Positions 7,919 to 62,928 of a stretch of 64,000 bases of DNA are shown piece after piece. Both the position numbers and the translations under genes were made by a program. This DNA comes from Zingiber officinale (lineage: Eukaryota > Streptophyta > Magnoliopsida > Zingiberales > Zingiberaceae): assembly GCF_018446385.1 (NCBI RefSeq), contig NC_056000.1, positions 47,958,722-48,022,721 of the forward strand, written 5' to 3'. The first letter of the stretch is position 1. Each line of letters begins with the position of its first letter. A model generated the notes under the pieces. That model was not told the DNA's origin, searched no databases, and saw nothing but the letters and a program-made list of their open reading frames with translations.

Positions 7919-8215
7919 GCAGCTATCCTGTTCGGCCAAACAGTGAGACCATTCCCCGTATCTCTTGATATCCCTTTGGGAGATAATGCCGTTGATAATA
8001 GGGCATGGTTAACATGTGGATCGTACAACGGAAGTTTCTACTGTCTTGTCAGAGATTTGCATATCCTGTTAAGGTATAGCGTCAGAGACACTTGTTGATA
8101 TATCCTTTCATAGGACAGTTTGGAGAACGTGCCACAGCTTGAGGAGTGTCCACGTCGTCCATTGTAGCACTATATAGGGGGAGTCCATGCACCGCCCGAA
8201 GTACGCGTTACTCAT
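7919..8215 (+). mobile_element. LTR-like tail with TATA box
   Basis: This GC-richer stretch ends in actatataggggg at 8169-8181, followed by sequence typical of a transcription start, just before AT-rich DNA begins. It directly continues repeat copy 2. The TATA box reads on the plus strand, opposite to the pol at 1-3326, so it may be the LTR of a separate plus-strand element. Family assignment is inference. Confidence 0.45.
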
Positions 8216-28693: not shown

Positions 28694-29369
<676 letters not shown>

Positions 29370-36942: not shown

Positions 36943-36947
36943 GTATT

Positions 36948-37971
36948 TGTTGGCAATCTTTGGACCGGCTAGAAGGAGAGTTGAATAGCCGATCACCCCA
37001 CCCCAAATCGCTTTCCTACGTATTCGTTTGCACAGCGAAATACAAATAATACATATACGAATATGAAAGATAAACTACAAAGACAAGAAAGCAAACCATT
37101 ACATGTCAATTTATGTGGTTCAGAGATAACTTACTTCTACTTCACAACTGTTCGTAAGATGGACGATCCTTATCCGTTAGTGGATTAGCCCCTTGTAAAC
37201 TCCGGTTACCTCAAGTCTCCTTGTAGGTGGAGAAACCTCATCATAACACCAACCGAGATCTCTTGGATTACAAAGAGTACTTGAAGACTTTGATGACTAC
37301 TAATTAAGGTTAACCACTACTAATTTCGCCAACCAAGACAAACCACCCCAAGATCCATTATATAGAGCTTAAGAAAATTAGCAAGTTGATTTTACTGTTA
37401 CCAGTTGACTGATACTTTCACTAGTCGATTGGTACTGGCCAACGGTCCTCTGCAGAACCCGTGATTCTGCCAACGGCTCTTTACTAGTAACTGATCCCTT
37501 CAACCATTGGGCACAGAAGCATTCTGTGCCCTGCCCTAGTTGACTAGTCCAGACGTTAGTCGACTGGTAAAACCCTAAACCTAGGGGTTTCCTTCTCAAG
37601 TACATTTCTCTCGCACTTGGATCCTCACGACTCACTTGACTCTTCTTTACAGCCTTGACCTCTTGCCTTCAAGCTTCCTTTCTCTGGCTCTTGTCCCTCA
37701 GATGCATTCAAGCTTGCATCTTGTCCCAATGTTATCCTTAGCGTACGCCCCGAAGTGTGATTCACTTGGCTTGTCTTTGTTGTATTGTCCATGATCCCTC
37801 AGATGCTCTATCTTTTACCAAACCTGAAGTCATCAAGTTAAGTCATATGTGTATTTAGCAAACCTGCACAACTCAAATATATATCAAATACAAGGTTAAA
37901 CCTAACTTAAACCCTTTTGTCCAAACATCAAAACTCATGGTCACACCGGACCCTCAAGATTAGTTACAACA
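36948..37971 (-). repeat. 3' LTR of the outer gag-only element
   Basis: 1024 bp; the reverse complement begins TGTTGTAACTAATCTTGAGG. It matches 53875-54905 along its length, with many small differences, so the insertion is not recent. It contains agtcgactgg-type palindromes at about 37385-37570. Confidence 0.85.
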
Positions 37972-38218
37972 ATCTCCTCCTTTTTTATATTTGATAATAC
38001 GTTTAAATTAGGAAAAACATAATAGCAATCAACTATGCCAAGTCACACTTGAATTTACATTTCCAAGGCTACACATTTAGACTTACACCACCAAGAAAAT
38101 ATGTAATATGCATTGGAACCTATCACAAGGCTTCCCCTACACCTAAGCTCCCCATTGAGCTAGGAATTTTTCCAAAAGGATATTTAAGAACCTATCACAA
38201 GGCTCCCTTACATCTAAG

Positions 38219-40634
38219 TGTTAGAGTGTATACTAAAAGCCTAGCTTTTGGTATAAACATTTATCTAGAAATAAAAATCACATTGGTCAAATATCTACAT
38301 TTATGATAAATGTAGTTGTTCAATTAATTTATATTGTAGATAACATGGTGTGTGGTGTCACACACAGAGGATCATGTTATCAGTATCTTATAAATTATAA
38401 ACAGTAGCTCACGACCATAATGGAAAGGAACAAACCATTGGAAGGTCGTAGTGTAATTAGGTATCAGTTTATCTTTACTGTATAATTACACTAGTACACT
38501 CAGAGTGTATTGAGTAGGACCATTTGAGGTCGTTTCTTTTATACTGATTTTATAAAGAAACAAAGACCTCGGTTATTATGGAAGTGTGTGCTCTTAATCC
38601 TAATATAATAACAAGCACATATATTTGATATTTATTTCTTTAATTTATCAATGGGTGAGATTTAGTTCGATAAATCAATAAGCCCGATAAGTTGGGAAAT
38701 GGTATCACTTATAGTGTGTGTTGTTGATTATAGAAGGAAACTGTGTCCTAGAGATACTAGGTTGATAATGTCCTCAAGAGGAGCTCATAAGGATTATATT
38801 GTCATGTTAAACCCTGCAGGTGGACTTAGTCCGACATGATAATAAGGTTGAGTGGTACTACTCTTGGACTAAGATATTAATTAAATGAGTTGTCAGTAAC
38901 TCACTTAATTAGTGGACATTCGATATCTTAAACACAGGGAGACTAACATGCTCATAATAAGAAGGAGCCCAAAAATGTAATTTGGGATTGGTGCGGTAGT
39001 TCAATAATAGTTCTCTAGTGGAATGAATTATTATTGATAAAATTAAGTTGTGTGTTCAGGGCGAACACGGGATGCTTAATTTTATCGGGAGACCAAAACC
39101 AATTCCTCCTCTCGGTCCCTATCGTAGCCTCTTATTTATAGAGTTCTATACCCACCTATACCCACCTTCTATACCCACCAATAAGGGGCCGACCAAGCTA
39201 GCTTGGGAACCAAGCTAGGGCCGGCCTAGGTATAAAATTGGGTGGCCGGCCCTAGCTTGAACCCAAGCTAGTGGGGGCCGGCCAAATTAAATTAAAAAGG
39301 GATTTTAATTTTAATTTTTATTATGTGGAAGAAATAATTTATTAAAGAGAATTAAAATAAAAATATCTCTCTTGTAAAAGATCTACAAAGATTAAAGAAA
39401 GAGATTAAATCTCTTTCCTTATTTGTAGATTGGTGAGATATTTTATTTTCTCTTTAAATTATCCACATGTTGATAAAATTAAAATTATAGAAATTTCCTT
39501 TTATCAACCATGAAGAGATTTTAAAGAGAAATTTTATTTTTTAAAATTTCCGGAAACAAATTAGGAAGTTTTAATTTGTTGATTAAAACTTGTCTAATTT
39601 ATTTCCTCTTGATGTGGCCGGCCATTAGAGATTAATTGGGGAAATATTATTTTATTTTTCTCAATTAAATCATGTCAAGGGAATTAAGGAAATTTTATTG
39701 TAATTAAATTTCCTAATTTGCCTAGGCCAAGGAATATAAAAGAAGGGGTGAGGGTGCCTTCACAAGATACAACCTCTATTATTCTCCCTCTCCTATTCTT
39801 TGGTGTGGCCGGCCAACATCTTCTCCCTTTCTTCCTCTTTGTGGTGGCCGAAATTCTCTATTGCTTGGAGCTCTTGTGGAGGCCGGATACTACTTGGAGA
39901 AGAAGAAGAAGAAGAAGGAGAGAAAGCTTGCATCTCTTGGAGCTTGGTTGGTGTTTTTCTTCTTCCTTGGTGAAGCTTTATTTTTTTGTGGCCGAACCTA
40001 GCTAGGAGGAGTAGAAGGTGGTTGGTGGTTTCTCATCTCGGAAGATCGTTGCCCACACAACGTCCGAGGTTAGAAGAGGAATACGGTAGAAGATCAAGAG
40101 GTTTTTTTTTCTAAAAGGTATAACTAGTAATTTTTCTTTCCGCATCATACTAGTTATTTTTGGAAATAATACTAAATACAAGAGGCATACGATTCTAGAG
40201 TTTCGAATTTGTTTTCGATATAGTGTTCTTTTGTTTTTCTTTTCCTTGTGATTTGATTGTTCTTTTCGGTTAACCTAAAGTTATTTTAGGAAATTAAATA
40301 TTAGCTTTCTATAAAAGGTTTTGTCTAGTCGGTGGTGGTTGCTCCCATATCCAAGAAGGCCATGTGCCTCGCCACGTCGAACCGATTATGGAAATTAATA
40401 TTTAATGGAATTAATAACTTAAGGTGACTTGGGTCGAACGTGTTAAGTTCCGCAGGAGATTCAAGTCAAAACCTAAAAGAACAACTAGATTAAGTTTTGG
40501 ATCAAACGTGTTAAGTTCCGCAGGCGATCCAAAATTTAATTTAAAAGAACACATGGTAGCTAGGAAAAGGTTCAGACCTTTGTACAAAATTTTTGTACAG
40601 TGGAACCTCTAGGCTTTCCGAGTAGCAACCAACA
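38219..40634 (+). repeat. 5' LTR of copia element A
   Basis: 2416 bp. It includes five GGCCGGCC palindromes (about 39218-39810), a TATA box at 39735-39740 and, near its end, two copies of gtgttaagttccgcagg (about 40440 and 40508). The 3' LTR is nearly identical. Confidence 0.92.
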
Positions 40635-43600
40635 ATTGGTATCAGAGCTAGGGTTTTGCCTCTGTGTATTTGGTATTAGTTTAATTATGCACATGTCATA
40701 CATAATTTAGGCAGGATAATAGTAGGATGTGCTAACTTTGTGGATGCAGGATCCAACTATTATGGCTTATAGTTTTATGTGTGTGATTGGACCCTTGGAC
40801 ATGTCAAGGGCATTTATATGTGTGTGCATGATTGTATTATAAAATACAGCAGGAGCTGTATTTAGTTTTATTAGGATTTTATTTTGATCTAGATACATGT
40901 ACATTCCTTTTATGGAATATAGGATCAAAATTGTAAAATTCTATTTATGTCACGGATCGAATCTTGCAAAGCGTGGAACCTTCTAAGGACCAGAGGTGCA
41001 GCGGAACAAGGAGCAAGATGAATGCGACACCGGTGGCGGTGGCCAAATATGGCAGCAGCTTGGGATGACAACACATGGAGGATAACTAGAGATAAAAGCC
41101 ATAATAGTTGAAAATTAGATTTTCTATTTATTGCTTTTATATTGTGCATGTTAGTTTACAAGTTTAGTAGGCTAGCATAGTTAAAATTCCTCATTAATAA
41201 ATAACTAAGTGGGAGAGGGATTTTAAGTAAATCCCATGGTCTCCATTACTGGTTTGTAAGTGATGCAAACAAGCTTGCGCGGCTCTGAGTGCCTTCCTCC
41301 ATAACGGATGAGCTAGTTTGCAGATCACTAGAACAGACTTCCATTTTTGGATGACTATAGAAAGTTGATTAAGAGCGTGTGATCTTCCCCAACGGAAGGG
41401 GCATAATCTTATTAATGGACTTAGTGTCAAGTAATGGTATACACTTAGACACATCTAATAGTATCCTCCCCATCGGAGTCACTGCTATTATTTGTGTGAC
41501 CAAATGAAACCAACTATTAATTTGTCATAAAACTAGGTTGACAAGATAATAAAATTAAAGGGTTAAAACCCCTCTTACAAATGATTGATTTTGTATACGT
41601 CCACACTAACGTGGCATACAAAATTAACGGTGTTTGAGATAATTTTATTTGTCATAAAGTTACGTTGACAAGATAGTCAATGGGTAAAACCCTCCTCTTA
41701 CAAATGTTGATTTTGTATACGTCCACACTAACGTGGCATGCAAAATTCACGGTGTTTTGAGGTGTTGGTAAATTTAAATAGTATTGTTAGAGGAATCAAT
41801 ATTATTTTAAATTTAGAGTCTTGACCAAATATTTGATTAAAGATAGACCAACTATTAATTTTATTCGTCATAAAGTAAGGTTGACGAGATAATAAAATTA
41901 AATGATAAAATTTCCTCTTTGAATTTGTATACGTGGCATACAAAATTCATGGGGATTTTTAAGGAGTTGGTCTTAACCAAATATTTTTGTGATTCTTAGG
42001 ATGATGGTCAATCCCTAGCTGATATACTTTAGGATAGACTTAGTGGTCCCAATAATAATTGATTGGAAATAGGATTTGGACATTAAGGTAGACTGTCCTC
42101 TTAGAACTAAGAACAATTTAAGTGTATTTAATTCATTAGTTGAAACATGTCTAGTGGTGTTATCTACCAGAACCTGGAGTGTAGATACAGATGTCATTAA
42201 TCATGTCGGTAATTCATTGCAGGGTTCCAGGAAACCCGACAACTAAATGAAAATAAAAGCACCGTCCACATGGGCATTACTGCAAAAATAGCAGCTGTTA
42301 CAGTGGGAGAGGTTTATTCTCTAAAAGGAATAAAATATGGATTATTAGAAATTGTCTTTACATACTAAGTTTAGAAAGAACCTGATTTCAGTTTCTAAAC
42401 TATTATAGAATAGATATTGTGTCTATTTTGATAACAAAGTTGTTATCAAGAAAAATAGGGAAGTTATCTATTCTGGTATGTTGGTTGAAAATTTAAAATC
42501 CAATAACTCTCACGATGCAACAAATGGAAATTAGTAACACATCTTCTAACTTTAAGAGAAAGTAACCTTCGGAAATGAACCAATTATATCTTTGGCATCT
42601 AAGGCTAGGTTATATTAACTTGAGTATGATTCATTGGTAGCTGATGAACTTTTGGGTTCATTAGTAGTGGAAATCTTTCCAACCTGCGAGTCTTACTTGG
42701 AAGGAAAAATAACCAAGAAGCTTTCAAGTCTAAGGGGTATGGAGTCAAAGATATGTTGAAATTGGTTCATTCTGATTTGTGTGATCCTATGACAATCCAA
42801 GCAAGAGGTTGTTTCAAATATTTCATCTATTTTATAGACAACTATTTGATATACGGATACATTTACTTGATGTGCCACAAGTCTAAGTGCTTTGATTAGT
42901 TCAAAGAGTATGAGGCTGATGTGGAGAAATGTCAAGGTAAAGTATCAAGACACTACGGTGAGATCGTAGTGGCAAGTACCTCTTGGGAGAATTTAGGAGT
43001 CACTTATCGAAGTAGGGATTCAATCCCAACTAACTACACCTAGGTATATCCCAACAGAATGGTGTAGAAAAAGGAAGGTATAGGACTCTTATGGAAATAA
43101 GTAGATTGATGATGAGTTATTTAGAAAATTACCAAATTCATTTTAAGGATATACTCTGGAAACGGAAGTGAACATAGTACCTTCCAAAGTCAGAACTCTC
43201 TACTCATATAGAATTGCTGAATAGCGTAAGCCTATTTTGAAGCATATTCGGATTTGGGTAGTCCAGCACATATGCTGAAGAGAGACAATGATAAGTTGGA
43301 CAGGAATTCACTTGTTTGTGGGTTATCCTAGAGAAATGAAAGTAGGTTTATAGTCTTAAAAATCAGAAGGTCATTATTAGCATCAATGATCGATTTTTAG
43401 AAAAGAACTATGTAATAAACCTCATGCCCATAAGAAAATTTGTTCTTAAGGAAATAATAAAAGACATGTCTAATCTAGTACCAACTGTACAAGATGAGAT
43501 ACCACAAGGAAACTGCAACACGTATCACAAATGATACACAATTGAAGAAAGTGCCTCATCGTAGTGGGAGGGTTGTTAGGCAACCTAAAAAGATTTATGT

Positions 43601-45166
43601 TTTGGGAGAGTTTTTTGGACTCGATCCCTGGAGGACATGAATCTGATCTCCGGACATATGACGAAGCACTCCAAGTAAAGATGCAATATCTTGGCAAAGA
43701 GTAATGAATAACAGAATTAGAATATATGCATTCTAATAAAATCTGGAAGCTTATAGAACCACCAAATGGTATAAAAGCCTTTGGGTGTAAAAAGGTCTAT
43801 ATTAGGAAAAGAGGGATAGACAGGAAGGTAGAAACTCTCAAAGCAAGGCTAGATGAAAAAGGAAACTTTTTCACTGGTAGTCATGCTTAAGTCTATCCGG
43901 ATTCTTTTATCTATTTGGCAAGTGGATGTCAAGACAGCATTCCTTAATGGAAGTCTTGAAGAAAACATCCATATAAAGCAACCAGAAGGGTTCATTGCAA
44001 AGGGCTAAGAGCATTTTGTGTGTAAGCTCAATCAGTCTATGGACTGAGGCAAAGCTTCAAGGTCTTGGAACATCCGGTTTATCAAAGTAATCCAGATCTA
44101 TGGATTTAGTAACCGGATAAGTCTTGTGTATACAAAAGATGTGATGGAAACGTGGTGGTATTTCTTGTACTATACTTAGATAACATTTTTGGTAGTTGGA
44201 AACAATATCAAAATGTTGTCAGAAGTAAGGGTATGGTTGTCCAAACAATTCGATATAAAGGACTTGGGAGAATGTATATATTTTTGAGATCAAAGTAATA
44301 AGGGATCGCAAGAAAAGAATATTTTACTTATCCCAAGCTTCATACATCAGAAATATCCCTGCTCGTTTTAAGCATACAAAACTCCAAGAAAGGTTTCTTA
44401 CCTTTTCAGGATTGAGTAACTTTATCTAAAGATATGTCTCTGTAGACTTCAAAGGAGATAAAGGAAATAAAGGCAGTTTTTATGCTACGGTGTCGAAGCC
44501 TAATGTATGCTATGCACGAGATCGAATCTGTTTGCCAAGGGCATAGTTAGCAGATATCAAAGTAACCAAGGACAAGGGGACTGCAGGAAAGCATATATTG
44601 TAGTACCTTAGAGGCACTAGAGATTATATGCTAGCTTACAAGGCAGTTAATTTAGTCCTTGTGGGTTGCATGGATTTTGACTTCCAATCGGATAGGGACA
44701 ATAATAAGTCAACCTCGGGGTTTTGTGTTTACTTTAGGAGGTAAAGTCATAACTATGGAAGAGTGATAAGCATAGGTGTTTTCTGGACTCACCATAGAAG
44801 CTTAGTATATGGCAAGCCTCGAGGTAGCTATAAAAGCGAATGACTCAATAATCTCAAGATAGGCTTAGATATGATTTGGTTTGTCCAAAGATTATTACAA
44901 TTTATTGTAATAATATTGGTGCGATAGCAAACTTCAAGAAACCATAAGTCTATAAAGGCAAGTAAACACAATAGAGCTAGTACCACCCAATACGAGAAAT
45001 CGATAAACGAGGAGAAGTTGTTGCTACCTAGATTGCATCGGTGATGACCTATAGATCCTTCCACCGAGGTCCTTAAGGCAAGAGCTTTTGATGGACATGT
45101 TGAAGGGTTAGGAATCGGATGTATGGCACAGATATAGACCTTAGTCTTTTAGTATAAGTGGGAGAT

Positions 45167-47569
45167 TGTTAGAGTGTATACTAAAAGCCTAGCTTTTGGT
45201 ATAAACATTTATCTAGAAATAAGAATCACATTGGTCAAATGTATACATTTATGATAAATATAGTTGTTCAATTAATTTATATTGTAGATAACATGGTGTG
45301 TGGTGTCACACACAGAGGATCATGTTATCAGTATCTTATAAATTATAAACAGTAGCTCACGACCATAATGGAAAGGAACAAACCATTGGAAGGTCGTAGT
45401 GTAATTAGGTATCAGTTTATTTTGACTGTATAATTACACTAGTACACTCAGAGTGTATTGAGTATAACCATTTGAGGTCGTTTCTTTTATACTGATTTTA
45501 TAAAGAAACAAAGACCTCGGTTATTATGGAAGTATGTGCTCTTAATCCTAATATAATAACAAGCACATATATTTGATATTTATTTCTTTAATTTATCAAT
45601 GGGTGAGATTTAGTTCGATAAATCAATAAGCCCGATAAGTTGGGAAATGGTATCACTTATAGTGTGTGTTGTTGATTATAGAAGGAAACTGTGTCCTAGA
45701 GATACTAGGTTGATAATGTCCTCAAGAGGAGCTCATAAGGATTGTCATGTTAAACCCTGCAGGTGGACTTAGTCCGACATGATAATAAGGTTGAGTGGTA
45801 CTACTCTTGGACTAAGATATTAATTAAATGAGTTGTCAGTAACTCACTTAATTAGTGGACATTCGATATCTTAAACACAGGGAGACTAACACACTCATAA
45901 TAAGAAGGAGCCCAAAATGTAATTTGGGATTGGTGCGGTAGTTCAATAATAGTTCTCTAGTGGAATGATTATTATTGATAAAATTAAGTTGTGTGTTCGG
46001 GCGAACACGGATGCTTAATTTTATCGGGAGACCAAACCAATTCCTCCTCTCGGTCCCTATCGTAGCCTCTTATTTATAGAGTTCTATACCCACCTATACC
46101 CACCTTCTATACCCACCTATAAGGGGTCGGCCAAGCTAGCTTGGGAACCAAGCTAGGGCCGGCCTAGGTATGGGTGGTCGGCCCTAGCTTGAACCCAAGC
46201 TAGTGGGGGCCGGCCAAATTAATTAAAAAAGGATTTTAATTTTAATTTTATTATGTGGAAGAAATAATTTATTAAAGAGAATTAAAATAAAATATCTCTC
46301 TTGTAAAAGATCTACAAAAGATTAAAGAAAGAGATTAAATCTCTTTCCTTATTTGTAGATTGGTGAGATATTTTATTTTTTCTTTAAAATTATCCACATG
46401 TTGATAAAATTAAAATTATAGAAATTTCCTTTTATCAACCATGAAGAGATTTTTAAAGAGAAATTTTATTTTTAAAATTTCCGGAAACAAATTAGGAAGT
46501 TTTAATTTGTTGATTAAAACTTGTCTAATTTATTTCCTCTTGATGTGGCCGGCCATTAGAGATTAATTGGGGAAATATTATTTTATTTTTCTCAATTAAA
46601 TCATGTCAAGGGAATTAAGGAAATTTTATTGTAATTAAATTTCCTAATTTGCCTAGGCCAAGGAATATAAAAGAAGGGGTGAGGGTGCCTTCACAAGATA
46701 CAACCTCTATTATTCTCCCTCTCCTATTCTTTGGTGTGGCCGGCCAACGTCTTCTCCCTTTCTTCCTCTTTGTGGTGGCCGAAATTCTCTATTGCTTGGA
46801 GCTCTTGTGGAGGCCGGATACTACTTGGAGAAGAAGAAGAAGAAGGAGAGAAAGCTTGCATCTCTTGGAGCTTGGTTGGTGTTTTTCTTCTTCCTTGGTG
46901 AAGCTTTATTTTTTGTGGCCGAACCTAGCTAGGAGGAGTAGAAGGTGGTTGGTGGTTTCTCATCTCGGAAGATCGTTGCCCACACAACGTCCGAGGTTAG
47001 AAGAGGAATACGGTAGAAGATCAAGAGGTTTTTTTTTCTAAAAGGTATAACTAGTAATTTTTCTTTCCGCATCATACTAGTTATTTTTGGAAATAATACT
47101 AAATACAAGAGGCATACGATTCTAGAGTTTCGAATTTGTTTTCGATATAGTGTTCTTTTGTTTTTCTTTTCCTTGTGATTTGATTGTTCTTTTCGGTTAA
47201 CCTAAAGTTATTTTAGGAAATTAAATATTAGCTTTCTATAAAAGGTTTTGTCTAGTCGGTGGTGGTTGCTCCCATATCCAAGAAGGCCATGTGCCTCGCC
47301 ACGTCAGTACTGGGAACCGATTATGGAAATTAATATTTAATGGAATTAATAACTTAAGGTGACTTGGGTCGAACGTGTTAAGTTCCGCAGGAGATTCAAG
47401 TCAAAACCTAAAAGAACAACTAGATTAAGTTTTAGATCAAACGTGTTAAGTTCCGCAGGCGATCCAAAATTTAATTTAAAAGAACACATGGTAGCTAGGA
47501 AAAGGTTCAGACCTTTGTACAAAATTTTTGTACAGTGGAACCTCTAGGCTTTCCGAGTAGCAACCAACA
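45167..47569 (+). repeat. 3' LTR of copia element A
   Basis: 2403 bp, same order of features as the 5' LTR, TATA box at 46666-46671. The frame at 46649-47041 is LTR leader sequence, not a gene. Confidence 0.92.
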
Positions 47570-47574
47570 CTAAG

Positions 47575-49502
47575 CTCCTCATTAAGTTAGGAATTTTACC
47601 TTAAAAGTATTTAACGTTTTTTACTTAAACCTTATTTCTCTCACTTTGCCTAATATCAAAAAGCTTTCAACAATATCCCAATTGTTGAAACTTGATCATC
47701 CAGACTAACCATAAACTCATGTATTTATCTCCCAAGGATCTCATACACCTATACGAATTGTCCCGATCAAACCCAATACTAAAAAATAGTTTTGGACTTG
47801 TACCAGTCGACTGTCACAGTTATTAGTCGACTACTCTCATCGAATTAAACTTACAGAACCATTCTATATTCGATAAATACTATTACCAATCAACTGATAT
47901 CTGCATTAGTCGACTGACACCATATTTTCAACTCAAATTATATTTTGAACCCAACTTCAAAAATGCACTAAAAATTTCACAGACATCCAAAAATCCCTAA
48001 ATTTTATGAAGATGTCTATTTTACCTGTGTCTACTTAGAAAAAATATATTAAAAATGTACATATTTCAGATCCCAAGATTGACACAAATTCCAAAACTAA
48101 CTAAATGGTTCAATTCAACTTTGATTTAAAGTCCTAGTTTTGACTTTCTCTTGATGTATCTGTCGATACTAAACTTAATGCATCCCTAGCATTAGTTTAT
48201 GTGCCATCTATACATCCAAAACCAATCGTCATGTAATATGAACCCAATTTCATATTTTCACGTATGAAACATATCCCATATGTACCAATTCCCTATGTTT
48301 GAAACTCAAGTCCGTCTCCAAATCATTTTGACACATTTCATGACACATCTAGAATCCCAAGCAATATCCACTTGAGATCCATTGGCCATAGTTCCTAAAT
48401 TAACTCTTTGAGCTATCCCTAGAGCTCTTGACCTTAGCTATCTTCTTATATACTTTCTCCACTATGGTTAAACCACAATGCTCCACCTTGGACACCTCAT
48501 CCTTGCCATAATCATATGCAACCCTAGCATATTTCTTCTCATTGGCCTTAGATGACTCTCCCTTGCCCTTGGTTACTCCTCCCTTGTCATTATCATGTGT
48601 CACCCTAGCATATGATCTCCTTTTGACCTTGGAGGGACTAGATTGATATCTGAAACCCAATTTATCATTGTTTGATTTTTGGCTACCCAACACCATACCT
48701 AACCCCTTAGATCCAATATTGAATTTCTCTAGGATTTTCTCTAAATTATCAAGCTTTACCTTTAAAGCTTGATTCTCCTTTTCTAGACTCTTAATTCTAG
48801 AATTGACTTGTCTACCTTGGACATTACTAGACATACCCATCTACCTAGGCATATGTCTTTCCTTCCCCTAGGTTCTCCATTTCCTTCTTCTCCTTAGGTA
48901 ATGAGAATTTAACTTGTTTAAGTCTATCATGCATAGGTACCTTAGGATTAATTCTAAAATTTACCCTACTTCTATCATAATGCTTAAATCCAAAATTATG
49001 CATGGGCATACTTTGATTAACAAAATCATTTTTCCTAATATGCATGGGAAAATAACAATTTGAATTACATTTCAAATTAGGGTATATCTCCCTTACACTT
49101 GAAGCTCCCCCTTGACTTGAGCTTCTCTTCTTCTCTCATTTCTTCAAATGTGCTAGCTTCTTAATCTCCCTCTTCTTAAGACATTTGGTGTGGTTGTGAC
49201 CCTTTTCTCCACACGTGAAGCATACAATGCTCATTTTCCTCAAGGTTTCTTGATTCTTACAACCCATGTTAGTATTTAAAATAACTTAATTGGATTAGGA
49301 GTTACCTTCTTCTTACTCATTGGTCACCTACTCTTGTAATATCCTTTCTCATTGCACCTGAAACAAATAATGTAGTCCTTTAACTTCACTTCGGTGGAGG
49401 TGCTAGCAAGGTTGACTATTCTAAGTCCTCTTCTTCATCCGTCATGGCTTTTTCTTCAACCTTTGATAATGTTTCCTCATCCACACTTGTGGATGACATT
49501 TT
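47575..49502 (-). mobile_element. Gag-derived interior of the outer element (zinc-knuckle and coiled-coil part)
   Basis: The minus strand at about 49130-49400 shows zinc-knuckle phrases (CFTCGEKGHNHTKC and a second CFRC-type). At 48400-48840 there is a Lys/Glu-rich coiled-coil segment (RIKSLEKENQALKVKLDNLE). The layout resembles the C-terminal part of the gag at 50391-51845. The stretch 47575-48400 is non-coding and holds agtcgact palindromes at about 47815-47925. It is a fossil. Confidence 0.7.
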
Positions 49503-50335
49503 TGTTGGAACCCCGAGGTGTTTTGATGTGATCAAACAAGTTAAGTTAGGTCCTACTTTGTCTAACCCTTGTGTCTAAGTGTGCAGGAGCTTAGGAACAC
49601 AAGAAGTCGAGCGGAGGACGCGGTTAGCGAGAAGGACGGCATGGGAGAGAGCCGACGGGCTCGGTGAGTCCGAGGGATGAGGTGACCGCGGAAGAGTACA
49701 CCGGTGGACGAGAAGAACGTGCGCGATGTTCGAGGGACGAGAAACCGGGAAGGAAGGCTGCTCGAGGAGAAGGCCGAAACTTGGGTTCGGGTGAGTCCTA
49801 TTCCGGATGGCCGAGATCACCCAAGCTAGCGGAGTTGGAGTGAAAGTCTTAGACCGAGAAAAGTCAACTATGTTAACTTTCCTGGTCCGGGCGCCCAGAA
49901 CCATTCAGGGTGCCCGGACTCGGATTTTGACCAGGATCGCGTCAAACGCGATCTGAACGTTGGGGGATAAAATTTTATCCCCCCCCCCCAGGGCGCCCCG
50001 AACAGTGCTATAAATATAGCACTGATCTGCACAGTTAATAAAACTAACTTGTAATCCATTGTCTCTGTGCTTTATATTCTTTTGTACTGTCAACGTTGTA
50101 AGAGGCTACTCCGCCCAGAGGAGAATCAGATAGTGCGCCATCGTTGCCTTGGATTTGTAATCCTATGATTGCAAACCAAGTAAACCCTTTGCGTCTGAAT
50201 TTGTTTTAAATTAGTCTCTTTTATTTATTATTACAAGTTCTTTTAAATTAGTTGAATATCTGAGAAAGGTTTGTGGTTTATTTTTTGTAGGGCAATTCAC
50301 CCCTCCCCTCATGCCGACCTCCAAAGGGACCAACA
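49503..50335 (+). repeat. 5' LTR of the inner gag-only element
   Basis: The TATA box lies in a 20-nt inverted repeat (agtgctataaatatagcact, 50004-50023). A GC-rich block with GGGCGCCC-type palindromes precedes it. Confidence 0.88.
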
Positions 50336-50390
50336 AGTGGTATCAGAGCAAGGCGCTTCAGGAGGACTAACCGCCGATCGAAGCAACGAG

Positions 50391-51845
50391 ATGGCCGGAC
50401 CAAGCATCGTTCCACCAAAATTCGAGGGGGACTTCGCAGACTGGAAGCGACGTATGGAGGTATTCCTAAGAACTAATTTTGAAATTCGGTTTATTATGAA
50501 GTATGGTTTTGTAGCTCCGATGAATCAAGATGGAGAAGAAAAAGAAGAGAAACATTGGACAAAGAAGGAGCAGAATGAGTCTGTAGCGAACAACCGTGCG
50601 AAATATCACCCGCTGAGCGTGTTGCCGCCTCAAGAGGTTAACCGCATCGGAAGCTATTCATCTGCTAAAGAACTCTGGGAGAAGTTCCTGGAACTCCATG
50701 AAGGCACGTCCGAAGCGAAGCTCGCTAGAAGAGACATCCTCCGGAACAAGCTGATGAACATCCATCTGGAAAAAGGTGAGAAGGTAGCCAGTCTACACGC
50801 GAAGGTAAAAGAACTGATTAATGGTCTCGAGAACCTCGGAGAAATGGTAACAAATCAGGACACAATACGCTACGCACTCAACGCGTTTCCCAGAACTTCA
50901 GAATGGACATCAATCGTCAATGCCTACTATATTTCGAAAGACCTGGAGGTAAGTATTTTAGAAGAACTATTCTCCACTCTTGAATTGCATGAAACCAGGT
51001 GTGCCGGGACAACAAAGGAAGCAAGCCAGATGATTGCACTAAACGCAACCAAGAAGGATGAACCCGAGTCAGATTCAGAAGACGATCAGGAAGCATACAT
51101 GGTAAGAAACTTTAAAAAGTTTTTTAGATCTAATAAATTCAAAGTAATGCAGAATAAAAAGAATCCAAGAAATAGAAGAAGGATGTGTTGCTACCAGTAT
51201 CAAAAGGAAGGACACCTAAAAGAGGATTGCCCAGAACTAAAGAAGGACAAAGGCAAAATTCCCAAGAAGCACAAGAACCTAAAAGCTACTTGGGACGACA
51301 CTTCATCATCTGAGTCTGAGATTCAAGAATATGTCGGGCTAGCGCTGATGGCAAGCTACGAAGGGCAAAACACATCAGAACCTAGCATCGATGAAGGGGG
51401 AGCGACCTCAGATGAAAGCAGCGAAGCAGGGGGAGATTCAAGCTTCAAGTCTGATATGGTAAGTGAGGTATGCCTCTTACCCCCTGATCAACTTTACTTT
51501 GGTATTAAGGCAATGGCTAAATCCATGTATAAATTAGAAAATAAAAATACCAAATTAGAAAATAAAATTTTAGAAACAAAAAGAATTTTAGCAAAATCAT
51601 GTCTTATAGAGGATTTAGATAAATTGAAAATTGAAAATGAAAAACTAAAAGAAGAAATAGAAAGATTGAAAAAGTCTAATAGTTCAAATATTTCTACTTT
51701 TAGAAATTATAGAGGACTAAACTGGTATTATAGATTTCACCAAAATCAAATTAGAAAAATATCAAAGGCCTATGTACCTAGAAAATATTTAATTAACCCT
51801 GTAGGAAGGAACCTCTATTGGGTTCCAAAAACCTGTTTAATTTAA
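50391..51845 (+). CDS. Gag protein of the inner gag-only element
   Basis: 484 codons from the ATG at 50391, just after the primer site; the upstream part of the frame is LTR sequence. The N-terminal half (FEGDFADWKRRMEVFL, LWEKFLELHEGT, then KLMNIHLEKGEKVASLHAKV) is the copia Gag/UBN2 fold. A zinc-knuckle region lies at about residues 265-280 (GHLKEDCPELKK), an acidic Ser-rich linker follows, and the C-terminal third is a Lys/Glu coiled coil. The frame looks whole. Gag packages element RNA into particles. No pol follows, so reverse transcription would need another element. Confidence 0.85.
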   Translation: MAGPSIVPPKFEGDFADWKRRMEVFLRTNFEIRFIMKYGFVAPMNQDGEEKEEKHWTKKEQNESVANNRAKYHPLSVLPPQEVNRIGSYSSAKELWEKFLELHEGTSEAKLARRDILRNKLMNIHLEKGEKVASLHAKVKELINGLENLGEMVTNQDTIRYALNAFPRTSEWTSIVNAYYISKDLEVSILEELFSTLELHETRCAGTTKEASQMIALNATKKDEPESDSEDDQEAYMVRNFKKFFRSNKFKVMQNKKNPRNRRRMCCYQYQKEGHLKEDCPELKKDKGKIPKKHKNLKATWDDTSSSESEIQEYVGLALMASYEGQNTSEPSIDEGGATSDESSEAGGDSSFKSDMVSEVCLLPPDQLYFGIKAMAKSMYKLENKNTKLENKILETKRILAKSCLIEDLDKLKIENEKLKEEIERLKKSNSSNISTFRNYRGLNWYYRFHQNQIRKISKAYVPRKYLINPVGRNLYWVPKTCLI

Positions 51846-52102
51846 AATTAAAATTAGACTTAGCATTTTCAGCAAGGAAATTAAACAACTAATTTCTTTA
51901 TGAGACTTTGTCTAAGGAAGTGGTTGTTACTTCAATAACCAAGAAAGCCTAGTGCCTCGCCACGACCTGGAAGCCAAGTATCAAAATAAAACGTTTAATT
52001 GACTAACTAAAAAAAAGCATTAATTTAATTTACTTAATGTTTTAAAAGAGTTATTCAATTTGTGTTAGAAAATATTTAAAATTGATTTAAAAAGATTTTT
52101 TT

Positions 52103-52360
52103 ACCTTAGAATTTTTTTTATGAAAATTACCTTAGAATTTTTTTTTATGAAAATTGACTTAGATTTTTTTTAAAAAAATTTACCTTAGGATTTTTTTTTA
52201 TAAAAAATTGCCTTTAAATATTTTTAAAATTTGACTAAGAATTTTTTATGATAACTGCCTTCGAAATTTTTTTTATGAATATTGACTTAGAATTTTTTTA
52301 AAAATTAGAAAAGTTTGTTTAGAACGTGTTTTTAAGATTTGCCATAGAAATTTTTTTATG
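52103..52360. repeat. T-rich degenerate tandem repeat in the inner gag-only element
   Basis: About eight to ten units of the type ccttagaatttttttatgaaaatt, 25-35 bp each, lie between the gag stop and the polypurine tract. Confidence 0.7.
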
Positions 52361-52523
52361 TGATCAAAGGGGGAGAAGAATGTTAAGTCTAGGGGGAGGT
52401 ACATTTTTTTTTAAAATTGAAAAATCTTTAGACTTAGTTGCAAATTACTTGCAAATTAACTGTTTTTATTGTATTTGTTTACCCTAACTTAACTTGGGTT
52501 GCTCACATCAAAAAGGGGGAAAT

Positions 52524-53371
52524 TGTTGGAACCCCGAGGTATTTTGATGTGATCAAACAACTTAAGTTAGGTCCTGCTTTGTCTAACCCTTGTGTCTAAG
52601 TGTGCAGGAGCTTAGGAACACAGGAAGTCGAGCGGAAGACGCGGCTAGCGAGAAGAACGGCACGGGAGAGAGCCGACAGGTTCGGTGCGTTCGAGGGACG
52701 AGGTGACTGCGGAAGAGTACACCGGTGGACGAGAAGAACGTACACGGCGTTCGAGGGACGAGAAACCGGGAAGGAAGGATGCTCGAGGAGAAGGTCGGAA
52801 CTTGGATTCGGGTGAGCCCTATTCCGGATGGCCGAGATCACCCAAGCTAGCGGAGTTGGAGTGAAAGTCCCGGACCGAGAAAAGTCAACTCTGTTGACTT
52901 TCCTGGTCCGGGCGCCCGGAACCATTCCGGGCGCCCAGACCCAGATTTTGTCTAGGATCGCGTCAAAAGCAATCTGAACGTTGGGGGATAAAATTTTATC
53001 CCCCCAGGGCGCCCGGAACCCCTTCGGGGCGCCCCGAACAGTGCTATAAATATAGCACTGATCTGCACAGTTAATAAAACTAACTTGTAATCCATTGTCT
53101 CTGTGCTTTCTATTCTTTTATACTGTCAACGCTGTAAGAGGTTACTCCGCCCAGAGGAGAATCAGATAGTGCGTCATCTTTGCCTTGGATTAGCAATCCT
53201 CTGATTGTAAACCAAGTAAACCCTCTGCGTCTGAATTTGTTTCTAATTAGTCTCTTTTATTTATTATTATAAGTTCTTTTAAATTAGTTGAATATTCGAG
53301 AAAGATTTGTGGTTTATTTTTTGTAGGGCAATTCACCCCTCCCCTTTTGTCGGCCTCCAAAGGGACCAACA
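52524..53371 (+). repeat. 3' LTR of the inner gag-only element
   Basis: 848 bp. It has the same TATA hairpin at 53040-53059 and four GGGCGCCC-type palindromes at about 52905-53035. Confidence 0.88.
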
Positions 53372-53874
53372 ATTTCCTCATCCTTCTCCTCCTTGGGTAT
53401 TAAACATAAGTCAACTTTCAGTTGTTCTACCTCCACTTGACCCATGCACTATGTCCTTTTCTTCAGACTTCTCCCCTTCATGTGTAGGCATAGATTCTTC
53501 ACTTAGAACCTTCTTTACTTTGCTCCACAAATTATGTGTGTTCTCGTATTTACCTACATGACGTACAACATTATTAGGAAAAATATCAATTAAAATTGAT
53601 ATTACCTTTGAATTTACCTTTGATCGTGAGATTTGCTCTGTCGTCCAATAACGTCGTCGGAGTCTCTTCCCTTTCTTATCTCTTAGGACTTTAAATGTCT
53701 CCTCAATAACCATTATGGTGTTCTGATCCATCTCAAAGAAGTTCTTCATTTTCACATCCAAAAGTGATGCCCCATAGACTTCCTCCTTCATACTTCTGCG
53801 GAACCATCAAGCTAGTCATCCTTAACTTCCTCGACGGTTAGTCTAATAGAGAGTGTCCTCGTTCTAATACCACT
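53372..53874 (-). mobile_element. Gag N-terminal part of the outer element
   Basis: The minus strand at about 53411-53850 encodes a copia-type gag start (MKNFFEMDQNTIMVIEETFKV region). It sits beside the primer site at 53862-53874 and is separated from the rest of the gag by the inner gag-only element. It is a fossil. Confidence 0.65.
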
Positions 53875-54905
53875 TGTTGGGGATATTTGGATCAACTATA
53901 AGGGGAGGTTGAATAGACAATCATCCTAAATCGCTTTCCTACGTATTTGTTAGCACAACGTAATACAAACAATACAAATACGAATATGAAAACTAAACTA
54001 TAAAGATGAGAAAGCAAACCACTGCACGCCAATTTACATGGTTCAGAGATAACTTGCTCCTACTCAACGGCTGCCCATAAGGTGGATGATCCCTATTCAT
54101 CGGTGGATTAGCCCCTGATAAACTCTGGTTACCTCAAGTCTTCTTTTGGGTGGAGAAACCTCACCACAACACCAACCAAGATCTCTTGGATTACAAAGAG
54201 CACTTGAAGACTTTGATGAATACTAATTATGGTTAATCGCCACTAATTTTGTCAACCAAGACTAGCCACCCCAAGCTTTATTATATAGAGCTTGGAAAAA
54301 TCAGCAAGCTGGTTTTACCGTTACCAGTCGATTGATACTTTCACAAGTCGATTGGTACTGGCCAACGGTCCTCCATAGAAGCCATGATTCTGCCAACGAC
54401 TCTTTATCAATTTATTGGTACCATCACCAGTCAACTAATCCCTTCAGTCGTTGGACACAGAAGCCTTTTGTACCTTGCCCCAGTTGACTGGTCTAGATGT
54501 TAGCCGACTGGTAAAATCCTAAACCTAGGCTTCCCTTCCCGAGTGCATTTCTCTCGCCCTCAGACTCACTTGACTCTTCTTTGCAGTCTTGACATCTTGC
54601 CTTCAAGTCTCCTTCCTTTGGCTCTTGTCTCTCGGATGCATTCAATCCCGCGGCTTGTCCCAATGTCAACCTTCGCATATGCTTTGAAGTTTACTTCCTC
54701 GGCTTATCCTTGCTTCCTTGTCCACGTTCCCTCGGATGCTCCATGCTTCATCAGACCCGAAGCCATCAAGCTAAGTCATATGCATATCCTGCAAACTTGC
54801 ACAACTTAAATGCATATATCAAATATAAGGGTAAACCAAACTTAAACTCTTTGCCCAAACATCAAAACTCATGGTCACACCGGACCCTCAAGATTGCTTC
54901 CAATA
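53875..54905 (-). repeat. 5' LTR of the outer gag-only element
   Basis: About 1031 bp, pairs with 36948-37971, and is followed by the target duplication gtatt at 54906-54910. Confidence 0.85.
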
Positions 54906-55032: not shown

Positions 55033-55748
55033 GCAGTTCTTTATGCTCCGGCTGACAGAAGCCTAATGTATGCTATGCACGAGACCAGAAATCTGTTTTG
55101 CCAAGGGCATAGTTAGCAGATATCAAAGTAACTCTAGACAAGGACAGTGGACTGCAGTAAAGCATATATTGAAGTACCTTAGAGGTACTAGAGATTATAT
55201 GCTAGCTTACAAGGCAGTTAATTTGGTCCTTGTGGGTTACATGGATTTTGATTTCCAATCGGATATGGACAATAATAAGTCAACCTCGGGGTTTTGTGCT
55301 TACTTTAGGAGGTAAAGTCATAACTATGGAAGAGTGATAAGCATAGGTGTTTTTCTGGACTCCACCATAGAAGTTTAGTATATGGCAAGCCTCTGAGGCA
55401 GCCATAAAAGCTGAATGACTCAATAACCTCAAGATAGACTTAGATATGATTTCTGGTTTGCCCAAAGATTATTACAATTTATTGTAATAATGTTGGTGCA
55501 GTAGCAAACTCAAAGAAACCATAAGTCTATAAGGCAAGTAAACACAATAGAGCGCAAGTACCACCCAATACGAGAAATAGTATAAACGAGGAGAAGTTGT
55601 TGCCGCCCAGATTGCATCAGGTGATGACCTATAGATCCTTTCACTAAGGTCCTTAAGGCAAGAGCTTTTGATGGGCATGTTGAAGGGTTGGGAATCAGAT
55701 GTATGGCAGCAGATATGACAGCTTAGTCTTTTAGTATAAGTGGGAGAT
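55033..55748 (+). mobile_element. 3' interior end of a copia element (RNase H part), first tandem unit
   Basis: Carries the copia RNase H phrases GIVSRYQSN, WTAVKHILKYL, GTRDYMLAYKA and KSTSGFCAYF, then a polypurine tract directly before the LTR at 55749. It is about 99 percent identical to 62213-62928 with a constant offset of 7180. It is a broken fossil, and its left edge is an abrupt junction. Confidence 0.85.
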
Positions 55749-58428
55749 TGTTAGAGTGTATACTAAAAGCCTAGCTTTTGGTATAAACATTTATCTAGAA
55801 ATAAGAATCACATTGGTCAAATGTCTACATTTATGATAAATGTAGTTGTTCAATTAATTTATATTGTAGATAACATGGTGTGTGGTGTCACACACAGAGG
55901 ATCATGTTATCAGTACCTTATAAATTATAAACAGTAGCTCACGACCATAATGGAAAGGAACAAACCATTGGAAGGTCGTAGTGTAATTAGGTATTAGTTT
56001 ATCTTAACTATATAATTACACTAGTACACTTAGAGTGTATTGAGTAGGACCATTAGAGGTCGTTTCTTTTATACTGACTTTATAAAGAAACAAAGACCTC
56101 AGTTATTATGGAAGTGTGTGCTCTTAATCCTAATATAATAACAAGCACATATATTTGATATTTATTTCTTTAATTTATCAATGGGTGAGATTTAGTTCGA
56201 TAAATCAATAAGCCCGATAAGTTGGGAAATGATATCACTTATAGTGTGTGTTGTTGATTATAGAAGGAAACTGTGTCCTAGTGATCTAGGTTGATAATGT
56301 CCCCAAGAGGAGCTCATAAGGATTGTCATGTTAAACCCTGCAGGTGGACTTAGTCCGACATGACGATGAAGTTGAGTGGTACTACTCTTGGAGCTAGATA
56401 TTAATTAAGTGAGTTGTCAGTAACTTACTTAATTAGTGGACATTTGTTATCTTAAACACAGGGAGACTAACACACTCATAATAAGAAGGAGCCCAAAATG
56501 TAATTTGGGATTGGTGCGGTAGTTCAATAATAGTTCTTTAGTGGAATGAATTATTATTGATGAAATTAAGTTGTGTGTTCGGGGCGAACACGGGATGCTT
56601 AATTTCATCGGGAGACCAAAACCAATTCCTCCTCTCGGTCCCTATCGTAGCCTCTAGTATATAGAGATTTATACCCACCGCATACCCACCTTCTTACCCA
56701 TCCAATGGGGCCGGCGAAGCTAGCTTGGAACCCAAGCTAGGGCCGGCCAAGTCCAAGTGGATGAGTCATGTAGGTGGCCGGCCAAAGCTTGGGTCCCAAG
56801 CTTAGGTGGCCGGCCACTAGAATATTAAAAAGGATTTTTATTAAAATTATTTCTTATGTGGATATCATGTTTTTAAAAGAGAGTTTAAAAATTAAAAATT
56901 TCCTTTATAACTTTCTACAAAAGATTAAGAGAAGAGATTAATCTCTTTCCTTATTTGTAGATTAAAAGGATGGTTTTAATTTTTGGTAAAAACTTTCCTT
57001 ATTTGTAAATCATCTACATGTTTAAAAGAGAGTTTAAAATTTGAAATCTTTCCTTATTTGTTGATTAAAGGAGGATTTTAAATTTTAAGAAAACTTTCAA
57101 TTTTAATCATGTTCATGATTTAAAAGAGAGTTTAAAATTAAATATTCTCTTTTATAAGTTTCTACAAAAGATTAAGAAAAGATTTGATATCTTTCCTTAT
57201 TTGTAGATTAAAAGAGATTTTAATTTTTAGAGATAACTTTTTTTTATCCACATGTTTAAAAGAAATATTTTAATTTATAAAATTTCCTTTTTATTAACCA
57301 CCATGAAGGGAAAAATTATTTGAGAAATTTTTATAAATTTCCGAAAGCAAATTAGGAAGTTTTAATTCTTGTGTGAATTAAAATTTCCTTGATTTGTGGA
57401 ATGGTGTGGCCGGCCATTGTATTTGTAAAAAGGAAATTATTTTTAATTAAATAAAATTTTCTTTTTCATGGCAAAATAATTAAGGAAGTTTTTAATTAAA
57501 TTTCCTTATTTGCCAAGACCAAGGATTATAAAAGAGGGGGTAGAGAAGGCTTCATGGTGAACAACTCTATTATTCTTCTCCTCTCTTTTCCTCCTTGGTG
57601 GCCGGCCCTAGCTTCTTCCTCTTCTCTTCTTCTTATGGCCGGCGGCAACCTCTCTTGGAGCTCTTGATGGTGGCCGGTTCTAGCTAGGAGAAGAAGGAGA
57701 GAAAGGTGGTTTTGTTTCTTGCATCCCTTGGAGCTTGGTGGTGGTGGCCGGACCTCTACTTCTCTTGGAGAATTGTGGTGGCCGAAACTTGCAAGGAAGA
57801 AGAAGGTGCTTGGTGGTTCTCATCTCGGAAGATCGTTGCCCACACAACGTCCGAGGTTAGAAGAGGAATACGGTAGAAGATCAAGAGGTCTTTTTAGAAG
57901 GTATAACTAGTAATTTTTCCTTTCCGCATCATGCTAGTTATTTATGGAAATAATACCAAATACAAGAGGCTTACGATTCTAGTATTTCGAATATGTTTTT
58001 CGAAGTTGTGTTCTTTTATTTTTTCTTTTCCTTGTGATTTGATTGTTCTTTTCGGTTAACCTAAAGTTATTTTAGGAAATTAAATATTAGCTTTCCATAA
58101 AAGGTTTTGTCTAGTCGGTGGTGGTTGCTCCCATATCCAAGAAGGCCATGTGCCTCGCCACGTCAGTACTGGGAATCAATTATGGAAATTAATATTTAAT
58201 GGAATTAATAACTTAAGGTGACTTGGGTCGAACGTGTTAAGTTCCGCAGGAGATCCAAGTCAAAACCTAAAAGAACAAATAGATTAAGTTTTGGATCAAA
58301 CGTGTTAAGTTCCGCAGGCGATCCAAAATTTAATTTAAAAGAACACATGGTAGCTAGGAAAAGGTTCAGACCTTTGTACAAAATTTTTGTACAGTGGAAC
58401 CTCTAGGTTTTCCGAGTAGCAACCAACA
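55749..58428 (+). repeat. Copia B LTR, complete (2680 bp)
   Basis: TGTTAG...CCAACA, the same family as copia A but about 270 bp longer. The extra length is in 56850-57300, where phrases like tccttatttgtagattaaa and tttaaaagagagtttaaa recur several times. TATA box at about 57526; five GGCCGGCC palindromes. The primer site attggtatcagagc follows. Confidence 0.92.
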
Positions 58429-61400: not shown

Positions 61401-62928
61401 ATCTCCGGACATATGACGAAGCACTCCAAGATAAATATGCAGCATCTTGGCAAAGAGTAATGAATAATAGAATTAGAATATATGTATTCTAATAAAATCT
61501 GGAAGCTTGTAAAACCACCAAGTGGTGTAAAAGCCTTTGGGTGTAAAAGGTCTATAATAGGAAAAGAAGGATAGACAGGAAGGTAGAAACTTTCAAGGCA
61601 AGGCTTGATGAAAAAGGAAACTTTTTCACTGGTAGCCATGCTTAAGTCTATCCGGATTCTTTTATCTATTTGGCAAGTGGATGTCAAGACAACATTCCTT
61701 AATGGAAGTCTTGAAGAAAGCATCCATATAAAGCAACCAGAAGGGTTCATTGCAAAGGGCTAAGAGCATCTTGTGTGCAAGCTCAATCAGTCTATGGACT
61801 GAGGCAAAGCTTCACGGTCTTAGAACAGCCTTTTTATTAAAGTCTATGGATTTATTTAGTAACCGGATAAGTCTTGTGTATACAAAAGGCGTGATAGAAA
61901 CGTGGTGGTATTTCTTGTACTATACGTAGATAACATTTTTGGTAGTTGGAAACAATATCAAAGTGTTGTCAGAAGTAAGGGTATGGTCGTCCAAACAATT
62001 CGATATGAAGGAATGTAAATATTCTTGAGATCAAAGTAATAAGGGATCGCAAGAAAAGAATATTTTACTTATCCCAAGCTTCATACATCGAAAAAAATCC
62101 CTGCTCGTTTTAAGCATACAAAACTCCAAGAAAGGTTTCTTACCTTTTCAGGATAGAGTAACTTTATCTAAAGATGTCTCTGTAGACATCAAAGGAGATA
62201 AAGGAATTAAAGGCAGTTCTTTATGCTTCGGCTGACAGAAGCCTAATGTATGCTATGCACGAGACCAGAAATCTGTTTTGCCAAGGGCATAGTTAGCAGA
62301 TATCAAAGTAACTCTAGACAAGGACAGTGGACTGCAGTAAAGCATATATTGAAGTACCTTAAAGGTACTAGAGATTATATGCTAGCTTACAAGGCAGTTA
62401 ATTTAGTCCTTGTGGGTTACATGGATTTTGATTTCCAATCGGATAGGGACAATAATAAGTCAACCTCGGGGTTTTGTGCTTACTTTAGGAGGTAAAGTCA
62501 TAACTATGGAAGAGTGATAAGCATAGGTGTTTTTCTGGACTCCACCATAGAAGTTTAGTATATGGCAAGCCTCTGAGGCAGCCATAAAAGCTGAATGACT
62601 CAATAACCTCAAGATAGACTTAGATATGATTTCTGGTTTGCCCAAAGATTATTACAATTTATTGTAATAATGTTGGTGTAGTAGCAAACTCAAAGAAACC
62701 ATAAGTCTATAAGGCAAGTAAACACAATAGAGCGCAAGTACCACCCAATACGAGAAATAGTATAAACGAGGAGAAGTTGTTGCCGCCCAGATTGCATCAG
62801 GTGATGACCTATAGATCCTTTCACTAAGGTCCTTAAGGCAAGAGCTTTTGATGGGCATGTTGAAGGGTTGGGAATCAGATGTATGGCAGCAGATATGGCA
62901 ACTTAGTCTTTTAGTATAAGTGGGAGAT
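58429..62928 (+). mobile_element. Interior of copia element B
   Basis: 4.5 kb, colinear with the interior of copia A: primer site, gag region, integrase (about 60380-60800), reverse transcriptase (about 61490-62040), RNase H (about 62210-62900) and a polypurine tract. The coding region is broken many times. With the LTRs at 55749 and 62929 it forms a structurally complete element that runs off the right edge. Confidence 0.9.

What the first reader, a model, noticed from the sequence alone, without database searches (positions are those of the whole stretch)
36948..54905. A gag-only retrotransposon nested inside another gag-only retrotransposon
Both the outer minus element (own interior ~2.7 kb) and the inner plus element (interior 2.2 kb) have LTRs, primer site and polypurine tract but show gag and no pol. 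Such elements are known in plants as TR-GAG. Two different families, one inserted into the gag of the other, suggest that this class is active and mobilised in trans here. The inner gag frame looks whole.
Basis: partly seen in the sequence, partly recalled or inferred. Interest (0 to 1): 0.7.

Follow-up and report, generated by a model that had tools for sequence, protein, structure and literature searches.

The report
Two gag-only retrotransposons, one nested
In what is very probably the ginger genome, a jumping element that carries only the gene for its shell protein has landed inside that same gene of a second, distantly related element; both belong to large families without copying enzymes, so they probably borrow them from other elements, a way of life already known in plants.

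Summary
Outer element A (minus) and inner element C (plus) each have LTRs, a primer site, a polypurine tract and gag, and no recognisable pol; a third, younger element B (38219-47569, decayed pol) also sits in A. A relative of A that is uninterrupted at both places (L072) confirms the nesting. They are not private deletions: all 82 scored relatives of gag C and all 150 of gag A have frames of gag size; 28 of 30 fetched C copies have two LTRs around a 2.05-2.39 kb interior; of 5,818 C-type gag ends genome-wide only 65 have a codon not starting with T at the stop position. In C, variants shared by three or more copies favour third codon positions (47:40:107) and private ones do not (113:102:118), so gag was selected while the family spread. 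No pol-bearing partner was found, in a search that was not exhaustive, so mobilisation in trans is inferred. C's frame is open but lacks one zinc-knuckle cysteine, A's gag is broken, and neither insertion is recent. These are TR-GAG-type elements, a known kind, abundant here by motif count.

The parts
36947..37969 (-). 3' LTR of outer element A
   Evidence: 80.5% to 53874-54903; K2P 0.196 over 1006 aligned sites
53874..54903 (-). 5' LTR of outer element A
   Evidence: further LTR copies genome-wide
53858..53873 (-). Primer binding site of A (GTGGTATTAGAACGAG, decayed)
   Evidence: relative L072 reads GTGGTATCAGAGTAAGG at the same place
53373..53873 (-). A interior, leader and gag N-terminal part (matches gag of L074, E 2e-18)
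47570..49501 (-). A interior, rest of gag (decayed CCHC knuckles, coiled-coil-like stretch; stops and frame changes) and 3' non-coding part
   Evidence: no pol match
37970..38218 (-). A interior, last 249 bp with polypurine tract
38219..47569 (+). Element B: Copia with 2.4-kb LTRs (97.8%), decayed pol, inserted in A with TSD CTAAG on the plus strand
49502..50336 (+). 5' LTR of inner element C
50337..50353 (+). Primer binding site of C (GTGGTATCAGAGCAAGG)
50271..51845 (+). Open frame of C; gag from the ATG at 50391 (484 codons), Retrotran_gag_2; zinc knuckle with Tyr for its second Cys
51880..51985 (+). Conserved non-coding block just after gag C, shared by sister families L065 and L069 and, in variant form, by the LTRs of B
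52506..52529 (+). Polypurine tract and start of 3' LTR of C
   Evidence: the pattern (A or G at one base) occurs 27,103 times in the genome
52523..53372 (+). 3' LTR of C
   Evidence: K2P 0.079 to the 5' LTR

Best explanation
A and C are members of two distantly related families of non-autonomous Copia-type LTR elements that code for Gag and nothing else (TR-GAG type), very probably in the ginger genome. Shown: structure, nesting, lack of pol in the copies examined, shared replication signals, and past selection on gag in the C family. Inferred: their RNA is packed by their own Gag, while reverse transcriptase, RNase H and integrase come in trans from a pol-bearing Copia that recognises the same primer site, polypurine tract and TGTTGG...CCAACA ends. 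A landed first; C later jumped into the acidic linker of the A gag; B came last.
For: Order by LTR divergence A 0.196 > C 0.079 > B 0.011 fits the nesting. Empty site in L072. Gag-only relatives: 82 of 82 frames 518-578 aa, own copy included; 28 of 30 with two LTRs, interiors 2,052-2,393 bp; 150 of 150 frames at most 639 aa; L072; PPT sample. C-type gag end: 97 of 100 listed sites have an in-frame stop; 65 of 5,818 have a codon not starting with T there; 2 of the 3 exceptions in the list were read and neither shows pol. Selection: shared variants 47:40:107 by codon position, private 113:102:118, chi-square p 6e-5; C against L069, which was found by its PPT and not by protein, 143:103:225 over 415 codons. 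Shared signals: AAGTGGTATCAGAGCAAGG in C, L073, L074 (one change in L072), and CATCAAAAAGGGGGAGATTGTTGG in members of both gag groups. Gags of the two groups are homologous (33% over 98 aa, E 2e-15).
Against: No pol-bearing partner was found. The 30 RT loci fetched look like one lineage by the start of their RT and have no LTR match to A, B or C, but the tool scored only the best RT matches. The primer-site core alone is no proof of a common partner: B, of another family, has it too. L072 and A have a somewhat different PPT. For A itself selection is not visible: A against L072 gives pN/pS 1.1, 1.2 and 0.6 in three pieces. The 30 C copies were ranked by protein likeness, which may lower dN; the private-variant control answers this only in part.
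Confidence: 0.78

Rival explanations
1. A and C are ordinary internal-deletion derivatives of pol-bearing families that happen to be seen here without pol.
For: Deletion derivatives are common in plants (established knowledge), and only part of each family was read.
Against: The same gag-only layout, stop and spacing recur in 28 of 30 C loci, in a second A copy and in sister families; 65 of 5,818 gag ends have a non-T codon at the stop.
Confidence: 0.05
2. Selection on gag dates from a pol-bearing ancestor; the gag-only families themselves copy passively and their Gag is not needed.
For: Between-family divergence is old and dS is near saturation.
Against: Variants shared among C copies, which arose inside the gag-only family, are third-position biased while private ones are not; the block right after gag that C, L065 and L069 share places their split after the gag-only layout arose (inference).
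Confidence: 0.13
3. Pol is present but too diverged, or sits in a part not read, so these are autonomous elements in disguise.
For: The A-group element L074/L066 has about 2.3 kb of unexplained sequence after gag.
Against: C has only about 680 bp between gag stop and PPT, too little for pol; in 7 of the 8 A-group PPT loci no plus-strand frame of 100 aa or more lies there (L062 has two); 8 of the longest such frames from L066, L068, L070 and L071 have no Pfam match over a cut-off; tblastx against Copia RT loci is empty for L066, L071, L073 and L074 but positive for decayed B.
Confidence: 0.04

Closest known systems
[quoted passage not shown]
   Same: Two LTRs and one gag ORF, no pol. An Arabidopsis member (AT5TE33540, 562-aa Gag) was caught transposing in ddm1 (PMC8704663, passages). 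Inpactor puts elements with only GAG, or GAG and AP, in this class (PMC6022998, passages).
   Different: Many more motif sites here than the 3,147 TR-GAG elements reported over 195 species in PlantLTRdb (PMC10025401, passages), though motif sites and intact elements are not the same measure; no autonomous relative found here, while AT5TE33540 has one.
RLG_Quinta with RLG_Cereba (einkorn wheat)
   Same: Non-autonomous family that contributes Gag and is thought to be moved by a pol-bearing partner sharing LTR motifs, PBS and PPT (PMC11302176, passages).
   Different: Centromeric, Gypsy (by its RLG name), partner known; here Copia-type, partner unknown.
Barley RLC_Giselle, RLG_WHAM, RLG_Sabrina_A
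   Same: Non-autonomous families with potentially intact gag; WHAM and Sabrina are among the five most abundant barley families and have no close autonomous partner (PMC5738225, passages).
   Different: Other lineages; WHAM and Sabrina are Gypsy, Giselle has a related autonomous family (Inga).
SIRE/Maximus Copia lineage
   Same: Gag with CCHC knuckle and coiled-coil tail, and the PPT style, recall this lineage (recalled, from no call). SIRE is prevalent in Amomum, also Zingiberaceae (PMC11066291, passages).
   Different: Lineage is fixed by RT, which A and C lack; not tested.

Membership tests
TR-GAG | Two LTRs with target duplication | tested here: met
   C: LTRs and 5-bp TSD with one mismatch. 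A: LTRs, no clean TSD
TR-GAG | PBS and PPT present | tested here: met
   in A both are decayed
TR-GAG | Gag domain encoded | tested here: met
   C: Retrotran_gag_2 E 1.7e-14. A: only by homology to L074 gag
TR-GAG | No RT, RNase H, integrase | tested here: met
   with B as positive control; relatives
TR-GAG | Short element (under about 4 kb in the original description, recalled; quartiles 3.6, 4.8, 8.1 kb in PlantLTRdb) | tested here: met
   C 3.87 kb; A about 4.7 kb without B and C, above the recalled limit but within the quartiles; the A-group element L074/L066 is about 7 kb
Cross-mobilised pair (Cereba/Quinta type) | Pol-bearing partner with same LTR ends, PBS and PPT | tested here: inconclusive
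   None among 30 RT loci or at the two gag-end exceptions read; genome not exhausted
SIRE lineage of Copia | RT phylogeny | not testable with these tools
   No RT in A or C

The most novel reading that the evidence does not exclude
Ginger holds a whole clan of gag-only Copia families (at least C, L065, L069 and the two groups around L071 and L066) that lost pol before they diverged, kept gag under selection, and rose to more than ten thousand shared PPT-LTR junctions per haploid genome while depending on a scarce pol donor.
Probability: 0.4. Interest if true: 0.6.

Novelty: new member of a known kind. Interest (0 to 1): 0.4.

Why it matters
Gag-only families this abundant bear on why non-autonomous elements keep gag at all: the split between shared (selected) and private (neutral) variants argues that an element's own Gag helps it spread even when its enzymes are borrowed. 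Practically, the published ginger annotation kept as intact only LTR elements with complete Gag-Pol and called LTRs without flanking Gag-Pol solo (PMC8342452, passages); such a scheme would miss or misfile these families and could distort accumulation and removal rates (inference).

Tried and rejected
Solo-LTR reading of the C16 allele: a single C LTR hit there suggested recombination, but L061 carries C interior as well, so rejected. RVT_2 loci as partner: L031-L060 look like one lineage by the start of their RT and show no LTR match to A, B or C. RVT_1 search gave no use. Rfam over 36900-64000: one match below its gathering score, at 59134, none near C. One search used a pattern one base too short and is not used; the original TR-GAG paper is not held, so its definition is second-hand. 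Papers with both TR-GAG and Zingiber: 0 in the library; a search on SIRE, gag and Zingiberaceae gave no gag-only ginger family in its listing. Searches for the conserved block as an Angio-domain SINE were seen as a listing only and not followed.

Full report
What is there. The window lies in a 3,090,333,446-base assembly whose second contig is 194,392,478 bases. The haplotype-resolved ginger assembly of PMC8342452 has 3.1 Gb, 22 pseudochromosomes and a largest scaffold of 194.39 Mb (passages read); it lists 219 scaffolds where this copy has 211 contigs. The organism is therefore very probably ginger, Zingiber officinale (inference). A self-comparison gives three LTR pairs in the region: A, minus, 36947-37969 and 53874-54903; B, plus, 38219-40634 and 45167-47569; C, plus, 49502-50336 and 52523-53372.

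Anatomy. C starts TGTTGG and ends CCAACA, has GTGGTATCAGAGCAAGG directly after the 5' LTR and CATCAAAAAGGGGGAAA before the 3' LTR. Its frame 50271-51845 matches Retrotran_gag_2 (E 1.7e-14, above the curated cut-off). A has the same layout in decayed form; its gag is recognised by homology to the gag of L074, not by a Pfam match of its own. Against three Copia RT loci, tblastx finds nothing in A or L072 and, in C, only matches to a gag piece of a neighbouring element in L040, while the badly decayed interior of B matches at 4e-23 to 5e-31.

Nesting. L072, a second member of the A family, has LTRs of 0.95 kb (the first 100 bases or so missing) and 1.04 kb (82.8% alike), a 2.6-kb interior colinear with the three pieces of A, and no insert at either place. 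Joining the flanks shows the empty sites: C sits in the acidic linker between the N-terminal part of gag and the zinc knuckles, with GAAAT/AAAAT as target duplication; B sits further down with CTTAG on both sides. LTR divergence (K2P) is 0.196 for A, 0.079 for C and 0.011 for B, or about 7.5-15, 3-6 and 0.4-0.9 million years at 1.3e-8 and 6.5e-9 per site per year (the slower rate is the one used in PMC8342499; the faster is recalled). C is also present in the matching place on contig C16, so it is probably older than the split of the two haplotypes.

Families, not deletions. The best 82 relatives of gag C, the window's own among them, have frames of 518-578 aa, 10 of them without any stop. The best 150 relatives of the C-terminal piece of gag A have frames of at most 639 aa. 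For comparison, 18 of the 150 best hits of the general Copia gag model have frames over 1,000 aa, so gag-pol frames are seen when present. These are capped lists of best matches (82 scored of 167,932 first-look candidates for C, 150 of 57,673 for A). Frame length alone would miss a gag and pol split by a stop, so DNA was read. Of 30 fetched gag-C loci (4.6 kb each, the window's own included), 28 have both LTRs within the stretch, with interiors of 2,052 to 2,393 bp; L003 and L013 do not. L017 and L018 are two units of one tandem array, so the 30 are 29 places.

Genome-wide count. The C-type gag ends in a conserved motif followed four codons later by the stop. A degenerate pattern for it, ending in A or G, occurs 5,818 times with 0 in the reversed control. 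Of the 100 listed, 97 have a stop there and 3 a codon not starting with T. Over the genome 65 of 5,818 have a codon there that does not begin with T, and many of those are, by eye, one-base changes or shifts of the stop; T-codons that are not stops were not counted apart. Two of the three exceptions in the list were read: L076 is a gag-only copy followed by PPT and LTR; L075 is a gag remnant whose likeness to C ends soon after, with no tblastx match to Copia RT loci and no Pfam match in the two frames tested. So a pol-bearing relative with this gag end is absent or very rare; a partner with a different gag end is not excluded.

Wider clan. The PPT-LTR junction CATCAAAAAGGGGGARATTGTTGG occurs 27,103 times exactly in the assembly, which holds both haplotypes, and 0 times in the control. 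Ten of the 100 listed places, all on contig C1, were read over 2 kb: two (L065, L069) are relatives of C with gag and the same 3' part; eight have another LTR type. Seven of these eight are, or share long stretches with, L071 or L066; L062 shares only its last 400 bases or so. Upstream reads for L071 and L066 (L073, L074) show PBS, gag and no pol; for L066/L074 the 5' LTR start matches the 3' LTR over 106 bases at 99%, while in L073 no LTR start in the same direction was found, so that element is not shown to be complete. Both gags carry CCHC knuckles over the Pfam cut-off; that of L074 is homologous to gag C. The A gag belongs with this group. C and this group share AAGTGGTATCAGAGCAAGG, longer than the primer core that B also has, and the PPT-LTR junction. 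How many of the 27,103 junctions are gag-only is known only from this small sample.

Selection. Among the 30 C copies, pairwise dN/dS has a median of 0.24 over 434 pairs, but these copies were ranked by protein likeness. A test less open to that bias splits variants: those seen in a single copy fall evenly on codon positions (113:102:118), those shared by three or more favour the third (47:40:107), p 6e-5. This is what is expected if gag was under purifying selection in the spreading lineages and decayed freely after insertion. L069 and L065, found by PPT, also differ from C mostly at third positions (143:103:225 and 120:98:166). For A no selection is visible: A against L072 gives pN/pS of 1.1 and 1.2 in two pieces and 0.6 in the third, as expected of two long-dead copies. 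The window's own C copy, although open, has lost the second zinc-knuckle cysteine, which the 29 other fetched copies keep.

How it likely works. Shown are layout, nesting, lack of pol in what was read, shared signals and past selection. Inferred is that Gag made by these elements packs their RNA, and that RT, RNase H and integrase come from a pol-bearing Copia with the same signals.

What is known. Gag-only LTR elements are a named class, TR-GAG; one was shown to move in Arabidopsis ddm1 (PMC8704663, passages). Barley and einkorn have gag-bearing non-autonomous families, in einkorn with a proposed partner (PMC5738225 and PMC11302176, passages). PlantLTRdb lists 3,147 TR-GAG in 195 species (PMC10025401, passages). 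No paper in the library held both TR-GAG and Zingiber. The finding is therefore a new member of a known kind; the abundance and the selection signal are its interesting part.

Noticed in passing
window 51880-51985 (+); variants at 40350, 47277, 58136: A conserved non-coding block (around CCAAGAAGGCCTAGTGCCTCGCCA) follows gag in C and its sisters L065 and L069, better kept between these families than gag, and recurs in variant form in the LTRs of B-type elements; 9,963 exact copies of the 24-mer in the genome. Function unknown; no Rfam match.
   Followed up: partly
window 55033-64000: B-type array right of A: LTR copies at 55749 and 62929, each preceded by the same interior end (98.8% alike over 1.8 kb), looking like an LTR-interior-LTR product of unequal recombination.
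   Followed up: no
window 4487-6094 and 6314-7923: Direct duplication of 1.6 kb at 93.5% identity, next to a B-type LTR piece in inverse orientation at 3584-4490.
   Followed up: no
L061 (C16 allele), 2970-4301: The matching copy of C on the other haplotype aligns at 93.9% only from the C position 50875 onwards; before it other sequence lies there, so another insertion or rearrangement probably sits in its gag.
   Followed up: no
L017 and L018 (C18:37582246-37589913): Two C-type gags 3.1 kb apart in tandem, an LTR-interior-LTR-interior array.
   Followed up: no
window 10630-11442 (+), 17605-18930 (-), 28911-29369 (-): By eye, without a database search: frames like a GATA zinc-finger factor, a beta-1,3-glucanase, and a plastid photosystem protein fragment.
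   Followed up: no
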